Shown here: positions 19,126-25,967 of the stretch, piece after piece
Numbering within the stretch: position 1 is the first letter of the stretch
Layout of the letters: each line of letters starts with the position of its first letter
Notes under the pieces: model-generated
What the model was told of the DNA's origin: nothing
Database searches by the model: none
The model's input: the letters and a program-made list of their open reading frames with translations, nothing else
Position numbers and translations under genes: made by a program
From: Catellatospora citrea
GTDB taxonomy: Bacteria > Actinomycetota > Actinomycetes > Mycobacteriales > Micromonosporaceae
Assembly (NCBI RefSeq): GCF_003610235.1
Contig: NZ_RAPR01000001.1
Span: forward strand, 7,378,001 to 7,442,000
Length of the DNA stretch: 64,000 bases
Direction: 5' to 3'

Positions 19126-19375
19126 GACCGCGAGCATAGGCCGTGGCACATGTCATTGCGGTTTCGTCGAAAGGCTGACTTCGCCTCCTCCGAACCGGTG
19201 AAATCCGCGCGGTCAACCCGCTGTTCGCCACGGGGCCACCCGCGGGGCACCCGACACGGGGGAGTCCCGCTGAAGCTAATTCCGCCAGGTGTGAGCAGGA
19301 AGAAGCGCTCTGAGTGGCGAATCAGCGGTTCGACCATCTGTGCGACCGCGCGAGAACATGGCAGGCTTTCTCATC

Positions 19376-19804
19376 GTGACGATGGTCAGGCAGTGGCAGC
19401 GGGTCTCGGCGTACGGGTTGGCGCGCGAGGGCGACACCGTGCTGCTCGTGCAGATCGGCCGCAGCGCCCACGGGGACCTGGGCAAGTGGATGCCGCCCGG
19501 CGGCACCATCGAGCACGGCGAGCACCCGGCCGAGACGGTGGTGCGCGAGTTCGCCGAGACCACCGGCCTGGAGGTGCGGGTCGACGGGCTGCTGGAGGTC
19601 GGTTCGGACCACCGGCAGCTGACCGGCGGCATCGACTTCCACGGCGTGTTCATGCTCTACGGCGTGACCGTGCTCGGCGGCGACCTGCGTCCCCAGCCCG
19701 ACGGCATCATGGTGGAGCCCAGCTGGCACAGTGCCTCCGAACTGGACTCCATCCCCATGCTCGACGCGGTGCGCGACGTGCTGCGCACCGCCGTCAAGAA
19801 GTAG
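19376..19804 (+). CDS. Nudix hydrolase
   Basis: About 142 residues from a GTG at 19376; ATGs at 19358 and 19382 are in-frame alternatives. The Nudix box reads G-T-I-E-H-G-E then seven residues then R-E-F-A-E-T-T-G-L. It fits the consensus G-x5-E-x7-R-E-U-x-E-E-x-G-U except that Thr replaces the second Glu of the E-E pair, which may weaken metal binding. These enzymes hydrolyse nucleoside diphosphates linked to another moiety. Its last 11 bases overlap the 3' end of the convergent helicase gene. Confidence 0.85.
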   Translation: MTMVRQWQRVSAYGLAREGDTVLLVQIGRSAHGDLGKWMPPGGTIEHGEHPAETVVREFAETTGLEVRVDGLLEVGSDHRQLTGGIDFHGVFMLYGVTVLGGDLRPQPDGIMVEPSWHSASELDSIPMLDAVRDVLRTAVKK

Positions 19805-22800
19805 GCTCGGCGCCCACCGCCTCGCGCCGGGCCTGGCGCAGCGCCTCGGTGATGCGCGGGCCGCGGCGGGTGAAGCCCAGCTGCGTGGTGGCCTCGGCGA
19901 CGACCTCGTCCTCGGTGCGGTTGAGGCCGTCGCTCTCGATCCAGCGGATCAGGTCCACCAGCGTCTGCCGCGGCACCTCGGTGATCTGCGTGGCCGGCGG
20001 CAGCTCGGGCTTCGGGGCGCGGCGCGCGGTCGCCGACGGCAGCCGCAGGGTGACGCCCTCGGCCACGGTGTCGACCGGCAGCCCGGCCGACTCCGACACC
20101 GCGAGGTCGTACACGGCCCGCGCCTTGGCGATCTCCACCTCGCGCTGGCGCATCCAGTCGGTGGACCAGATTCGGTGGAAGCGCCAGCCCAGCCGCTCCA
20201 GGTGCTGCTGGCGCAGCCGGTCGCGGTCGCGCACGGTCGGCGAGGCGTGGTACGACGCACCGTCGGCCTCGATCGCCAGCACCAGCCGCTCCGGGTCGTC
20301 CGGGTGGGTGGCGGCGAAGTCGATGCGGTGCCCGCCGACGCCGTGCTGCACCACCAGCGGAATGCCCGCCGCGGTGAGCTTGGCCAGCACGTCGGCCTCG
20401 AACGGGTTCAGCGCGGGTGCGGTGACGGCGGCCAGGGACTCGCGGCGGCCGCCGGAGGAGGCGTACGCCAGGAAGTCGCGCAGCATCACCGCGCCCTCGG
20501 CCCGCAGCCGCTGCGGGTCCATGTCCAGGTGGGTGAACGAGCTGACCACGGTCATCCGGCGGCGGGCCCGCGTGATCGCCACGTTGAGCCGCCGGTGGCC
20601 GCCCTTGGTGTTCAGTGGCCCGAACCGGTACAGCATCCGCCCGTCCAGGCCCTTCGGGTAGCCGACCGTCAGGATCACCGCGTCGCGCTCGTCGCCCTGC
20701 ACCCGCTCGATGTTCTTCACGAAGAACGGCTCGTGCCCGTGCTCGGAGAAGTACGGCTCCAGCTCCGGGCGGGTGGCCAGCGCGCGGCGCAGCGCGGCGT
20801 CGACCCGCTCGGCGTGGGTGATGCCCATGGTGATGACGCCGAGCGACTCGGCGGGCCGCTGTGCGGCGTGGGCGAGGATCAGGTCCACCACCCGGCGCAC
20901 CTCGGCACTGCCGCTCTCGGCCGACGCGTCCGGGTCGGCCTCGCCGGTGACCAGCACGTGGCTGATGCAGTCCCCGGCGTCCGCGCCCGGGAACGTGGTC
21001 AGCGCGTTGCCGTTCGGGCTGTACACGTGCCGGTCGGAGAACGCGATGAGCCGCTCGTCGCGGCTGCGGTAGTGCCAGGCCAGGTGCCGCACCTGCGGCA
21101 GCGGCAGGGTGTGCGCGAACGCCTGCAGCAGCGACTCGACGTCGTCGCCGAGCGCGGTGCCGTCGTCGGGGGTGTCGGCGTCGCCGTCGGCGCGCTGGAA
21201 GAAGTTGGTCGGCGGCAGCTGGTGCTCGTCGCCGGCCACCACGACCTGGCGGCCGCGCATGATGGCGGGCACGCCGTCGACCGGCTCGACCTGGCTGGCC
21301 TCGTCGAAGATGACCACGTCGAACAGCACCCGGGCCGGCAGCACCTGGCTGACCAGCAGCGGGCTCATCGCCCAGCACGGCTTGAGCGCGGTCAGCGCGT
21401 CCGGCGCCTGCTCGAACAGCCGCCGCACCGGCAGGTGCCGGGCCTTCTTCGCGGCCTCGCGGCGCACCAGCTGCTGCTGCTCGGGGAACTCGTCCAGCAC
21501 CGCCATCAGGTTGCGGGCGGCCAGGTGCCGCACCCGCTGCGCGGCCGCGGTGATGTGCGCGGCGTCGGCGGTGTGGAACTCGGTCACCGCCGCGTGCAGG
21601 GCCGCGCCGTGGAACGTCGACAGGTGCTCGTCGGTGAAGCGCACGTGCTCCAGCACCGAGCTGAGCCACGCGTGGTCGAACGCGGCCCCGGCCCTGGTGG
21701 TGTCGCCGCCGACGCCGCGGGCCGCCAGTTCGTCGAGCAGCCGCCGGGCCCGCCATTGGACCAGGGACGCGGCCAGCTCGTTGCGACGCGCGGTGCGCAG
21801 CAGGTCGGCCTGGTCGCCGGCGAGCCGGTCCAGCTCCGGCTGCAGCAGCCCCAGGTCGTCGTTGTCGATCGGCACGTACCCGCGCAGCGCCTCCAGCGCT
21901 CCGGTGAACTCGGCGAACACCGCCAGCGAGGCGGCGGCCGACGGACTGGTGCGCGGCGGCTGCCCGTCGCGGCTCACCACGCGCCAGCGGGCCAGCTGGT
22001 CGGCCGCGGCGACGGCGACCTCGTGCAACTCGACGGTGCTCGGCCGGCCTGGCGCGAGCCAGTGCTCCCGGATCTGCTTGAGCACCTTGCGGCGCTGCCA
22101 GAAGCCCATGGTGCCGCGCTCGGGGCCGGTCGCCGACGCGGTCGCCCAGGCGGCGAGGTCGGCGCCGTACGCCTCCGGCCGCAGCCGGCGCAGCGTGGCG
22201 TCGACCTCGGCCAGCAGCACGGCCATCTTCTGCGCCGAACCCAGCGTGCCCGGCACGGACAGGCCCAGTTGCGCGGCCAGCGCGGTGAGCTGCCGGCGGG
22301 CCGGGGCCAGCGTGGTCGCGGCCTGCCCGGCCAGCGCGTACGCCGACTGCGCGGCCGCGCGATCGGGGATCGTCGAGCGCACCCACGGCCCCGGGCCGGG
22401 CTCGGCGTCGAACGCGCCGAGCTGCGCCAGCTCCGTCACCGCGGCGCGCAGGCGCGCCGCGGTCGGCGCGTCGAGGCGGGCCAGGTCGTCGCCGGACCAG
22501 CGCTGCGGGGTCATGTCCGCGGGACTGATGCCCAGCAGCCGCGACTGCAGCTCGAACATGGACAGGCCCCACGGATCGTGCTTCGTGTGCAGGGCGGCGT
22601 GGTGGGCCGACAGCGCGGCGCGCGCGTCGACCAGGCTGCGGTCGGTGTCCTCGGTGGTCGGCCGGGTCTCGTGGCGCGCCCGCTGCAGCCGCGAGTCCAG
22701 CGCTCGCGCCAGCTCCCGGCGGCTGCTCTGGTCGCCGTGCAGGTTCTGCACGAGGTCGTCGAGGCCGACCTGGTGCAACCGGTCCAGCACCGCGTCGATG

Positions 22801-23780
22801 GCGGCGCGCTTCTCCGCCACGAACAGCGCCGTGCGCCCCCGCGCGGCCAACGCCATGATCATGTTGGCGATGGTCTGGCTCTTGCCCGTCCCCGGCGGAC
22901 CCTTGACCACCAGGTGGTGCCCGGCGACCGCGGCGTTGACCGCGTAGCTCTGCGACGAATCGGCGTCCAGCACCAGGAACTCGTCAGCCGGGGGCAGCCG
23001 GTCCGGCGCGTCGGCCTCGACCGGCGCGGTGGCGTACAGCTCGCTCAGCGCCCGCGGGTCGCCCGCCAGCGCGGCGATGACCTCGCTGCTCTCCAGCAGC
23101 TCGCCGTGCTCGGTGATGTCGGCGACCATGGGCAGCTTCTCGTAGAGGAACGTGCCCACCAGCAGCTCGGGGCTGACCGTGAAGCCGCGCACGTCCTGCG
23201 CCGCCTTGGCCAGCTGCTCGAACAGCGGCGCGGGATCGTAAGGGCCCTCCGGCAGCGCGTCGAGCAGCGTCTCCGGGTCGAGGTCGAGCCGGTGCTCCTT
23301 GAACAGTTTGAACAGCAGCACCGGGTTGACCGTCGGCTCCGGATCGAGCGTCAGCGCGAAGTCGGTCTCCGCGGCCGACGTGGTGCGCACGGTCAGCCGG
23401 TGCAGCAGCACGGGCGAGCGCGGCGTGCGGTCGGCCTCCCACCAGCTCGCGATCCCGCTCGCCAGGTAACCGACGTCGACCCCGCGCTCCTCGGCCAGCG
23501 TGCGCATCCGGGTCCGGATCGTCCGCGCGCGCCGCATGGCATCGGCATGGGCGACGTCGTCCGGAAACAACTGACGCAGCGTGACGGTGCGCCCCGCGGT
23601 CAGCACGGTCACCGCCTCCGGCCGCGCCTCGTCGAGCCGCAACGTCCCGGCCCGCAGATCGCGGTAGTACGCCAGCTGGTTCCGCCCCGAGTCGTCCACC
23701 AGCGCATCTGCCCACCGCCTGGTGGCGAGCGCGACATGGGACGGCTGCGGCAACTGCGGGGCACTGTCGGACACGGTCAC
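19794..23780 (-). CDS. Superfamily 1 helicase fused to MTES_1575-type nuclease (DUF4011/Hhe-like, probable antiphage defence)
   Basis: 1328 residues from a GTG at 23780 (GTG at 23774 also possible). The N-terminal about 290 residues resemble the DUF4011-type leader. The helicase has Walker A GPPGTGKS (294-301), Walker B F-D-E-A-S-Q (825-830), motif III G-D-E-H-Q-L-P-P (850-857), R-V-Q-G-D-E-R-D (1026-1033) and N-V-A-I-T-R-A-R (1066-1073). A PD-(D/E)xK nuclease of the REase_MTES_1575 (Vsr/DUF559-like) type spans about 1125-1225, with Asp1154 and Glu1171 in L-A-I-E-A-D-G-A-S-Y-H. A DUF3320-like tail ends the protein. This order resembles, from memory, the one-gene Hhe defence candidate. It probably unwinds and cuts foreign DNA, which is inference. 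No methylase or partner gene is adjacent. Confidence 0.88.
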   Translation of the reverse strand: MTVSDSAPQLPQPSHVALATRRWADALVDDSGRNQLAYYRDLRAGTLRLDEARPEAVTVLTAGRTVTLRQLFPDDVAHADAMRRARTIRTRMRTLAEERGVDVGYLASGIASWWEADRTPRSPVLLHRLTVRTTSAAETDFALTLDPEPTVNPVLLFKLFKEHRLDLDPETLLDALPEGPYDPAPLFEQLAKAAQDVRGFTVSPELLVGTFLYEKLPMVADITEHGELLESSEVIAALAGDPRALSELYATAPVEADAPDRLPPADEFLVLDADSSQSYAVNAAVAGHHLVVKGPPGTGKSQTIANMIMALAARGRTALFVAEKRAAIDAVLDRLHQVGLDDLVQNLHGDQSSRRELARALDSRLQRARHETRPTTEDTDRSLVDARAALSAHHAALHTKHDPWGLSMFELQSRLLGISPADMTPQRWSGDDLARLDAPTAARLRAAVTELAQLGAFDAEPGPGPWVRSTIPDRAAAQSAYALAGQAATTLAPARRQLTALAAQLGLSVPGTLGSAQKMAVLLAEVDATLRRLRPEAYGADLAAWATASATGPERGTMGFWQRRKVLKQIREHWLAPGRPSTVELHEVAVAAADQLARWRVVSRDGQPPRTSPSAAASLAVFAEFTGALEALRGYVPIDNDDLGLLQPELDRLAGDQADLLRTARRNELAASLVQWRARRLLDELAARGVGGDTTRAGAAFDHAWLSSVLEHVRFTDEHLSTFHGAALHAAVTEFHTADAAHITAAAQRVRHLAARNLMAVLDEFPEQQQLVRREAAKKARHLPVRRLFEQAPDALTALKPCWAMSPLLVSQVLPARVLFDVVIFDEASQVEPVDGVPAIMRGRQVVVAGDEHQLPPTNFFQRADGDADTPDDGTALGDDVESLLQAFAHTLPLPQVRHLAWHYRSRDERLIAFSDRHVYSPNGNALTTFPGADAGDCISHVLVTGEADPDASAESGSAEVRRVVDLILAHAAQRPAESLGVITMGITHAERVDAALRRALATRPELEPYFSEHGHEPFFVKNIERVQGDERDAVILTVGYPKGLDGRMLYRFGPLNTKGGHRRLNVAITRARRRMTVVSSFTHLDMDPQRLRAEGAVMLRDFLAYASSGGRRESLAAVTAPALNPFEADVLAKLTAAGIPLVVQHGVGGHRIDFAATHPDDPERLVLAIEADGASYHASPTVRDRDRLRQQHLERLGWRFHRIWSTDWMRQREVEIAKARAVYDLAVSESAGLPVDTVAEGVTLRLPSATARRAPKPELPPATQITEVPRQTLVDLIRWIESDGLNRTEDEVVAEATTQLGFTRRGPRITEALRQARREAVGAEPTS

Positions 23781-23851: not shown

Positions 23852-24484
23852 TCAGCGAGCAGAGCGCGTGATGACGTGCAGCAGGTCGTCGAGGCCGGCG
23901 GTGAACTCGGCGTCCCAGTCGGGCGGCTGTGCCAGTACCCCCGAAAGCTCCTGATGCGCGGGCGCGGCGCCGCCCGCGGCGGTGGCCCGTGCGTGCCGGC
24001 GCGGGTCGGCCGGCGCGAAGCGGCCGGTGATCTCGCCGATCGCGTAGCCGAGCACGTAGGTCGAGACCAGCCGCTCCAGCCGCGGCACCTGCGCCGCCGG
24101 CACGCCCGCGTCCAGCAGCGCCCGGTAGAGGGCGTCGACCAGGCGCACCGCGTCGGGCGTGACCGCGGGCCGGGACAGCAGCAGGGGATACGCGGCCGGG
24201 TGCCGGTGGGCGAGCGCGCGACCGGCGTGGGCGATGGCGCGCAGCCGCGCGTCCCACGCGCCGGGAGTGCCCGCCGCGGGCAGCAGTTCGGCCAGCAGCA
24301 GGTCGACCAGTCCGTCGAGCAGCGCGTCCTTGTTGCCGACGTACGGGTACAGCGCCATCGGCGTCACCCCGACCCGGGCCGCGACCGCGCGCATGGACAG
24401 CGCGTCCAGGCCTCGCTCGTCGGCCAGCGCCAGCGCGGCGGTCAGGATCTCCCGCCGCCGGGCCTCGACACCCTGCTCACCCAT
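23852..24484 (-). CDS. TetR-family repressor of adjacent ABC transporter
   Basis: 210 residues. The N-terminal helix-turn-helix reads A-L-S-M-R-A-V-A-A-R-V-G-V-T-P-M-A-L-Y-P-Y-V-G-N-K at about 29-53, the TetR pattern, followed by an all-helical ligand domain. It is transcribed divergently from an ABC exporter pair across a 48-bp gap filled with two operator-like repeats. This is the standard layout for a drug- or metabolite-responsive repressor of its own exporter. The ligand is unknown. Confidence 0.92.
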   Translation of the reverse strand: MGEQGVEARRREILTAALALADERGLDALSMRAVAARVGVTPMALYPYVGNKDALLDGLVDLLLAELLPAAGTPGAWDARLRAIAHAGRALAHRHPAAYPLLLSRPAVTPDAVRLVDALYRALLDAGVPAAQVPRLERLVSTYVLGYAIGEITGRFAPADPRRHARATAAGGAAPAHQELSGVLAQPPDWDAEFTAGLDDLLHVITRSAR

Positions 24485-24486
24485 GT

Positions 24487-24516
24487 TCTACAGTGTAGAT
24501 CTATACAGCGTAGATC
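24487..24516. promoter_or_regulatory. TetR operator-like double repeat
   Basis: TCTACA-G-TGTAGA (24487-24499) is a perfect palindrome. A second copy of TACAGYGTAGATC follows 15 bp on (24489-24501 and 24504-24516, one mismatch). The pair fills the gap between the divergent TetR and ABC genes and leaves room only for the AGGAGG ribosome site (24521-24526). It is very likely the TetR operator, bound as two dimers. Confidence 0.7.
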
Positions 24517-24532
24517 ACAAAGGAGGTGCGGC

Positions 24533-25237
24533 ATGCTGCACGCGTCCGGCCTGCGCAAGGCGTACGGCCCGGTCACCGCCCTGGACGGCTTCGACCTCGC
24601 CGTCGCGCCCGGCGAGATCTGCGGCCTGATCGGCCACAACGGCGCGGGCAAGAGCACCTTCGTGGAGGTCGTCACCGGCCTGACCCGTCCGGACGCAGGC
24701 GTCGTCACCGTCGGCGGCCTGCCACCGGCCCGCGCCCGCCACCTCGTCGGCCTCGCCCCGCAGGAGATCGCGCTCTACCTGTCCGTCACCGTCGAGCACA
24801 ACCTGCGCCTGTTCGGCGCGCTCGCCGGGCTGCGCGGGCGCGGCCTGCGCCACGCGATCGACGACACCGCGCAGGCGCTCGGCCTGACCGACGTGCTCCG
24901 GCGGCCCGTCGGCCTGCTCTCCGGCGGGCAGCGCCGGCGCGCCCAGGCCGCGACCGCGCTGCTGCACCGGCCCGCGCTGCTGGTGCTCGACGAGCCGACC
25001 ACCGGTGCCGACCCCGGCACCCGAGCCGCACTCCTGCACCTGGTGCGGTCCCACGCCGCCGCCGGCGCCGCGGTGCTCTACACCACCCACTACCTGCCCG
25101 AACTGGTCGACCTCGGGGCCACGCTCGCGGTCTGCCGGGCCGGGCGGGTCATCGCCCGCGGCAGCCAGGACGAGCTGCGGGCCGGGCATGACACCCTCGA
25201 CGACCTCTACCACGCCCTGGCGGTCGACCATGCGTAG
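24533..25237 (+). CDS. ABC exporter ATP-binding subunit
   Basis: 234 residues with AGGAGG six bases before the ATG. Walker A G-H-N-G-A-G-K-S is at 34-41, signature L-S-G-G-Q in the middle and Walker B L-L-V-L-D-E-P next, followed by the switch His in Y-T-T-H-Y. It belongs to the ABC-2/DrrA-type class that energises export of drugs, lipids or peptides. The next gene starts inside its last codons, so subunits are made in a fixed ratio. TetR control is likely through the operator directly upstream. Confidence 0.93.
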   Translation: MLHASGLRKAYGPVTALDGFDLAVAPGEICGLIGHNGAGKSTFVEVVTGLTRPDAGVVTVGGLPPARARHLVGLAPQEIALYLSVTVEHNLRLFGALAGLRGRGLRHAIDDTAQALGLTDVLRRPVGLLSGGQRRRAQAATALLHRPALLVLDEPTTGADPGTRAALLHLVRSHAAAGAAVLYTTHYLPELVDLGATLAVCRAGRVIARGSQDELRAGHDTLDDLYHALAVDHA

Positions 25238-25967
25238 CCTCGCCCTCATCCGGCTCAACCTGGCCCTGCTGGCGGCCGAGCCCGGCGCGGTGATCAGCCG
25301 CATCGGCATGCCGCTCGTGATGATCACCGTGTTGCGCCCGCTCTACCGCGCCGCCATCGGCGACCAGGGCACCACCCACGCGGTCACCGGCATGCTGGTG
25401 CTGTTCTCGCTGCTGGGCCTGTCCATCGTCGGCGGCTCGCTGCTCACCGAACGCTCCTGGCACACCCTGGACCGGCTGCGGGCCACCCCCGCGTCGCCGG
25501 GGCAGATCCTGACCGGCAAGGCGGTCGCGCTCGGCGGCGTGCTGCTGGCGCAGCAGGCGGTGGTGCTCGGGTACGGCGTGGTCGCGCTCGGGCTGCGGGT
25601 GGCCCGCCCGGACCTGCTGGCCCTGGCGGCCCTGGCCTGGGCGGTGACGCTCCTGCTGCTCGGCGCTGCCGCGGCGATGACGGTACGCAGCCACAGCGAG
25701 CTCGGCGCCGTCAACGACCTCGGCGCGCTGCTGCTGTCCACGCTCGGCGGCGCGATGGTGCCGCTGTCGCTGCTGCCCGGGTGGGCGCAGACGATCGCGC
25801 CCGCGTCCCCCGGTTACTGGGCGCTGCAGGCGCTCGGCGGCGCGGCGACCGGCGACCCGTCCGCCGTGCTGCACGGCGTCGGCGTGCTGCTGCTCGTCGC
25901 GCTCGCCGCAGGCCTGTACGCCGCCTGGCGCATGAACCGCGGCTGGGGCCGCAGCCGCCTGCTCTGA
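25230..25967 (+). CDS. ABC-2 type exporter permease
   Basis: 245 residues from an ATG at 25230 that overlaps the ATPase stop by 8 bp. Six hydrophobic segments are visible, with the cytoplasmic E-R-S-W-x-T-L-D-R-L-R-A-T-P coupling motif typical of ABC-2 permeases (DrrB-like). It forms the membrane channel of the exporter with the preceding ATPase. A short repeat CTCTGA/TCAGAG joins its stop to that of the convergent ATPase gene. Confidence 0.9.
   Translation: MRSLALIRLNLALLAAEPGAVISRIGMPLVMITVLRPLYRAAIGDQGTTHAVTGMLVLFSLLGLSIVGGSLLTERSWHTLDRLRATPASPGQILTGKAVALGGVLLAQQAVVLGYGVVALGLRVARPDLLALAALAWAVTLLLLGAAAAMTVRSHSELGAVNDLGALLLSTLGGAMVPLSLLPGWAQTIAPASPGYWALQALGGAATGDPSAVLHGVGVLLLVALAAGLYAAWRMNRGWGRSRLL

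What the first reader, a model, noticed from the sequence alone, without database searches (positions are those of the whole stretch)
19794..23780. Single-gene helicase-nuclease with the layout of an antiphage defence protein
The sequence shows a large leader domain, a complete superfamily 1 helicase (Walker A 294-301, Walker B 825-830, motifs III-VI) and a C-terminal PD-(D/E)xK nuclease with the E-A-D-G-A-S-Y-H signature of the MTES_1575/Vsr-like group, plus a DUF3320-like tail. From family knowledge, DUF4011-helicase-Vsr fusions were flagged as the single-gene Hhe defence candidate. Actinomycete versions are little studied. No partner gene is adjacent, and the convergent Nudix and nearby Imm51-like and MccF-like genes are other conflict-type proteins.
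Basis: partly seen in the sequence, partly recalled or inferred. Interest (0 to 1): 0.75.

Follow-up and report, generated by a model that had tools for sequence, protein, structure and literature searches.

The report
Core helicase-nuclease, likely phage defence
This gene encodes one large protein joining a nucleic-acid motor to a cutting domain; it belongs to a known family of suspected anti-virus proteins, but in this bacterial genus it is a fixed, ever-present gene rather than part of a mobile defence cluster.

Summary
The gene is real, on the minus strand (23780 to 19794, 1328 aa), in a Catellatospora genome. It has a partial DUF4011 match, a complete UPF1-like SF1 helicase with a long helical insertion, an intact Vsr-like PD-(D/E)xK nuclease and a three-helix tail; DUF3320 was not detected. 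It is not Hhe or ProA: it misses both NCBIfam cut-offs (576 of 2000 bits; 811 of 1500). Its best model is PADLOC's candidate PDC-S37 (849 bits). All 11 held genus genomes carry it next to the same Nudix gene, under purifying selection; no defence island was found in the neighbours scanned. Two of seven outgroup regions have the two flanking genes adjacent without it. Catalytic residues are nearly invariant in 159 relatives. Beyond the finding: in a sister branch (10 loci) a second gene of about 280 aa follows the helicase directly; its predicted C-terminal fold is HEPN-like and no library model reached significance on it. Three of seven such contexts tested lie beside restriction or DISARM genes. 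Best reading: a vertically kept solo anti-phage/anti-plasmid helicase-nuclease from a family that elsewhere works as a two-gene system. A housekeeping repair role is not excluded.

The parts
19794..23780 (-). Whole gene: 1328-aa DUF4011 / SF1 helicase / PD-(D/E)xK nuclease protein
   Evidence: Open frame; 11 of 11 genus orthologues; PDC-S37 849 bits
23304..23558 (-). DUF4011 match, residues 75-159 (only the second half of the profile)
   Evidence: Pfam 32.8 bits, cut-off 22.2
22746..22961 (-). AAA_11 match, residues 274-345, with Walker A GPPGTGKS (294-301) at 22878-22901
   Evidence: Pfam 67.9 bits; K300 in 159 of 159 relatives
21384..22652 (-). Long all-helical insertion between the Walker A and motif II halves of RecA domain 1, residues 377-799
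   Evidence: Secondary structure of the AlphaFold2 model
21291..21314 (-). Motif II VIFDEASQ, residues 823-830
   Evidence: D826 and E827 in 159 of 159
20538..20906 (-). AAA_12 match, second RecA domain, residues 959-1081, with VQGDERD and LNVAITRARRR
   Evidence: Pfam 33.7 bits; Q1028, R1071 in 159 of 159
20121..20402 (-). Vsr-like PD-(D/E)xK nuclease (MTES_1575), residues 1127-1220; D1154 20319-20321, E1171 20268-20270, D1173 20262-20264
   Evidence: Pfam 102 bits; residue conservation; alpha-beta-beta-beta-alpha-beta order in the model
19812..19970 (-). Three-helix C-terminal tail, residues 1271-1323; possible wHTH, not shown to be DUF3320
   Evidence: Model; no Pfam hit
19358..19804 (+). 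Nudix gene, convergent, overlapping the 3' end by 11 bp; left flank of the presumed insertion site
   Evidence: Pfam NUDIX 52.3 bits; beside the helicase in 11 of 11 genus genomes; next to the DUF5925-AAA gene, no helicase, in L094 and L095
25978..26985 (-). DUF5925-AAA gene, right flank of the presumed insertion site
   Evidence: Pfam DUF5925 189.8 bits

Best explanation
It is a solo innate immune enzyme against invading DNA, kept as a core gene. Shown: domain order, intact helicase and nuclease motifs, fixed locus, purifying selection, best match to a candidate defence family. Inferred: the UPF1-like motor loads on single-stranded or forked intermediates of replicating phage or plasmid DNA, the helical insertion and DUF4011 part hold or gate it, translocation brings the C-terminal Vsr-like nuclease to the substrate, and cutting stops the invader. 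The trigger is unknown; by analogy with Hna and Nhi it may be a phage single-strand-binding protein or exposed ssDNA. The gene entered, or moved to, the site between a Nudix and an AAA gene before the Catellatospora species split and has been inherited vertically since.
For: PDC-S37 is the best PADLOC model for the window protein and for 6 of 6 other short forms scanned. Nuclease and helicase residues are nearly invariant in 159 aligned relatives. Median dN/dS 0.268, within the range of 8 neighbours (0.164 to 0.476). Foldseek puts the model with senataxin, IGHMBP2, UPF1, Sen1, Aquarius and Dna2 (77 matches at E <= 0.001). In the sister branch the same enzyme lies beside a type I-like restriction gene (L061), a DrmD-like plus type IIG pair (L064) and DISARM genes DrmA and DrmD (L067); in the solo branch L087 lies beside JetC of Wadjet (964 bits). 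Neighbours of 16 outside contexts match 210 PADLOC families (119 proteins) against 44 in control stretches of mostly the same genomes (128 proteins). Precedent for core defence: widespread systems are often conserved through actinobacterial genera (PMC10482375, passages), and a DUF4011 gene is in every P. aeruginosa isolate beside a defence hotspot (PMC10250203, passages).
Against: In the genus it is in 11 of 11 genomes at one place, unlike most defence genes, and the 5 window neighbours scanned show no defence gene beyond a 32-bit NUDIX match to PDC-S07. PADLOC family counts are inflated by many models per family and by kinases (4 members against 1). Of the 7 solo contexts tested outside the genus, 4 gave no hit, and the SNF2-like (L072) and RecQ-like (L080) hits may be ordinary helicases. 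No experiment on this clade was found.
Confidence: 0.5

Rival explanations
1. A housekeeping DNA-repair or replication helicase-nuclease (Dna2-like or very-short-patch-repair-like) that processes flaps, mismatches or stalled forks, and was recruited to the core genome.
For: Genus-wide conservation at one locus; also in 7 of 7 Dactylosporangium-like genomes; constraint like that of ordinary neighbours; Foldseek relatives include Dna2.
Against: Patchy in the order: 63 of 249 genomes match at all and 13 of these are the short form; different locus in each genus examined; best models are defence candidates; defence neighbours in several relatives.
Confidence: 0.3
2. An RNA-targeting system like CoCoNuT type III-B, where a UPF1-like helicase with a coiled helical insertion is fused to a Vsr-like nuclease.
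For: UPF1, senataxin and IGHMBP2 are the nearest folds; long helical insertion after Walker A as described for CnuH (PMC11090510, passages); the sister branch has a predicted HEPN-like partner, HEPN being a ribonuclease fold.
Against: No McrB-type GTPase or coiled-coil gene among the 10 window neighbours scanned; the nuclease belongs to a DNA-cutting type (recalled); DISARM and restriction neighbours target DNA.
Confidence: 0.15
3. The window gene is a remnant of a two-gene system that lost its HEPN-like partner and no longer defends.
For: The sister branch has the partner in 10 of 10 loci; none in 11 of 11 Catellatospora genomes.
Against: No stop inside any of 11 genus copies, catalytic residues kept, purifying selection. 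Which state is ancestral is not resolved: the tree is midpoint-rooted.
Confidence: 0.05

Closest known systems
PDC-S37 (PADLOC phage defence candidate, single gene)
   Same: Best PADLOC model, 849 bits, for the window protein; also best for the 6 other short forms scanned.
   Different: No difference found in domain order. The candidate itself is not described in the papers searched (0 occurrences of the name).
Hhe (DUF4011 anti-phage protein)
   Same: Shares DUF4011, SF1 helicase and Vsr-like nuclease; 576 bits in NCBIfam, 451 in PADLOC.
   Different: About 1330 aa instead of about 1800-1900; far below the NCBIfam cut-off of 2000 bits.
ProA (NCBIfam NF058533)
   Same: Best NCBIfam model, 811 bits.
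   Different: Cut-off 1500 not met; model length 1903. No paper on it was found.
CoCoNuT type III-B CnuH (PMC11090510, passages)
   Same: UPF1-like SF1 helicase, helical insertion after Walker A, fused Vsr-like nuclease.
   Different: No CnuB/McrB or coiled-coil partner genes seen; CnuH III-B has an N-terminal wHTH and OB fold, not found here (N-terminal 128 residues not modelled).
MTES_1575 architecture (PMC3710099, passages)
   Same: Founding example of the nuclease domain family: SF1 helicase plus Vsr-like nuclease.
   Different: MTES_1575 also carries HEPN, transglutaminase and two wHTH domains overlapping DUF3320 in one chain; the window protein lacks HEPN and a detectable DUF3320.
Hna and Nhi single-gene helicase-nucleases (PMC13381803, abstract; PMC12904381, passages)
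   Same: Works-like comparison: one protein with helicase and nuclease; SSB reported as trigger.
   Different: No family membership tested or claimed.

Membership tests
PDC-S37 | Match to the PADLOC profile as best model | tested here: met
   849.3 bits, E 1.8e-255, best of 12 models; best stretch profile 758-1444 of 1550
PDC-S37 | Shown anti-phage activity | not testable with these tools
   Candidate only; no paper names it
Hhe | NCBIfam NF042953 curated cut-off | tested here: not met
   575.9 bits against 2000
Hhe | DUF4011 + SF1 helicase + Vsr-like nuclease in one chain | tested here: met
   DUF4011 (second half only), AAA_11, AAA_12, MTES_1575
   No hit at E <= 1; three-helix tail in the model
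ProA | NCBIfam NF058533 curated cut-off | tested here: not met
   811.3 bits against 1500
UPF1-like SF1 helicase | SF1 motifs and UPF1/SMUBP2 relatives | tested here: met
   SMUBP-2 and UPF1 by sequence; senataxin, IGHMBP2, UPF1, Dna2 by fold
PD-(D/E)xK Vsr-like nuclease | Core fold and acidic active-site residues | tested here: met
   MTES_1575 102 bits; D1154, E1171, D1173; strand order in the model
CoCoNuT type III-B | Adjacent McrB-type GTPase (CnuB) gene | tested here: not met
   Pfam on 10 window neighbours: NUDIX, Imm51, S66, MscS, PfkB, TetR, DUF5925-AAA, PhoX, glyoxalase, one without a hit
CoCoNuT type III-B | Helical insertion after Walker A | tested here: met
   Residues 377-799 all helical in the model
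Two-gene helicase-nuclease + HEPN-like branch | Partner gene directly downstream or elsewhere in the genome | tested here: not met
   0 of 11 genus genomes at E <= 0.01; the related probe P0127 finds 15 of 249 in the order

The most novel reading that the evidence does not exclude
The short DUF4011 helicase-nucleases form a modular immune family with two modes. One branch is an undescribed two-gene system in which the helicase-nuclease is coupled to a protein with a HEPN-like ribonuclease fold and a possibly Death-fold-like N-terminus, carried in defence islands. The other, with the window gene, is a solo form that became a fixed core guardian of whole genera. If so, helicase-nuclease sensing can be wired either to its own DNA cut or to an added RNA-cutting suicide effector.
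Probability: 0.3. Interest if true: 0.65.

Novelty: new member of a known kind. Interest (0 to 1): 0.42.

Why it matters
It gives a clean case of a defence-type enzyme maintained as a core gene, where most defence genes come and go, so its cost, trigger and benefit can be tested in one genus. The comparison also turns up a candidate two-gene system next door in the tree that no library model used here recognises on its partner.

Full report
What is there. The gene runs on the minus strand from 23780 to 19794 and encodes 1328 aa. Named relatives of 72-98% identity with the same flanks are all Catellatospora (8 loci), so the window is from that genus. Pfam finds DUF4011 (second half of the profile), AAA_11, AAA_12 and MTES_1575, but no DUF3320. 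By sequence the helicase is nearest to SMUBP-2 and UPF1. An AlphaFold2 model of residues 129-1328 (mean pLDDT 81.3, 50 sequences) shows a RecA core, a long helical insertion (377-799), a nuclease domain in the order helix-strand-strand-strand-helix-strand with D1154 on the second strand and E1171 on the third, and three tail helices. Foldseek ranks senataxin, spliceosomal Aquarius, IGHMBP2, Sen1, Dna2 and UPF1 highest (77 matches at E <= 0.001).

Which family. PADLOC's PDC-S37 is best (849 bits), Hhe second (451). NCBIfam gives ProA 811 bits against a cut-off of 1500 and Hhe 576 against 2000, so it is a relative and not a member of either. PDC-S37 is also the best model for 6 of 6 other short forms. 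The protein database holds 5622 relatives at E <= 1e-20 among the 8000 candidates scored.

Is it active. In 159 aligned relatives (the window, 8 named and 30 unnamed loci, 120 database proteins; near-copies included; L065 and L091 dropped because interrupted), K300, D826, E827, R905 and R1071 are invariant; D1154 is D in 151 and E in 8; E1171 is E in 158; D1173 is D in 159.

Core gene of the genus. 11 of 11 genus genomes carry it with no stop inside; the convergent Nudix gene adjoins it in all 11. TetR lies on its other side in 7 of those 11. Pairwise dN/dS has median 0.268 (55 pairs), within the 0.164 to 0.476 of 8 neighbours. The helicase tree shares 5 of 8 splits with the neighbours' tree, including the deep ones. 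Those two genomes have their helicase elsewhere, with other neighbours. So the gene entered or moved to this site before the sampled species split.

Patchy outside. In the order 63 of 249 genomes match; 13, the window's included, are full-length short forms and the others match mainly in the C-terminal half of frames mostly about 1800-2300 codons long. In the family 56 of 150 match.

Defence neighbourhood. The window: 5 neighbours scanned, one weak match (NUDIX to PDC-S07, 32 bits). Sister branch, 10 chosen large neighbours from 7 contexts: strong hits in 3 contexts, L061 (type I-like, 549 bits), L064 (DrmD-like and type IIG) and L067 (DrmD 1488 bits, DrmA 964 bits, on either side of the helicase pair). 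Solo branch outside the genus, 10 chosen neighbours from 7 contexts: L087 beside JetC (964 bits), L072 and L080 beside helicases that may be ordinary, 4 contexts without a hit. Unselected: 210 PADLOC families matched by 119 neighbours against 44 by 128 control proteins; one control genome (G210) stands in for its near relative G190 and one (G326) for G291, and families are not genes.

How it probably works. An SF1 motor of the UPF1 type moves along single strands and carries a Vsr-like nuclease; Hna and Nhi show that such single proteins can defend and can be set off by phage SSB (PMC13381803, abstract; PMC12904381, passages). CoCoNuT III-B has the same helicase-Vsr fusion with predicted RNA targets (PMC11090510, passages), which keeps an RNA role open. 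Core status does not exclude defence: see PMC10482375 and the DUF4011 gene in every P. aeruginosa isolate (PMC10250203).

Verdict. A real, intact member of a known candidate defence family, unusual for being a fixed core gene; the more novel lead is the two-gene sister branch.

Noticed in passing
L061-L069, L089 (helicase 3' end): Gene of about 280 aa directly downstream of the helicase-nuclease in 10 loci; HEPN-like predicted C-terminal half, no significant library hit.
   Followed up: yes
L067 5417-19988: Helicase plus partner lie between DrmD and DrmA genes of a DISARM cluster, in the opposite direction.
   Followed up: partly
L110 1-3777: A remote SF1 helicase-nuclease plus a partner relative, next to what reads like a tyrosine recombinase (by eye, not tested): possibly a mobile version.
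   Followed up: partly
L065, L091: Interrupted helicase copies: one with an in-frame stop (G014), one split between two frames (G338).
   Followed up: no
P0037, P0109: Relatives whose precomputed Pfam list adds PF01272 or PF00929 (recalled as GreA/GreB and a DnaQ-type exonuclease), so fusions exist.
   Followed up: no
window 23852-25967: A TetR and ABC-type gene block between helicase and AAA gene; TetR present in 7 of 11 genus genomes.
   Followed up: partly
L014, L015: Two Catellatospora genomes (G010, G005) hold a further, distant relative of the nuclease or C-terminal half.
   Followed up: no
G281, G322, G360, G365, G367, G369, G371: One genus (g92) has 3-4 matches per genome, mostly in frames of about 1600-2600 codons, at several places in each.
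   Followed up: no
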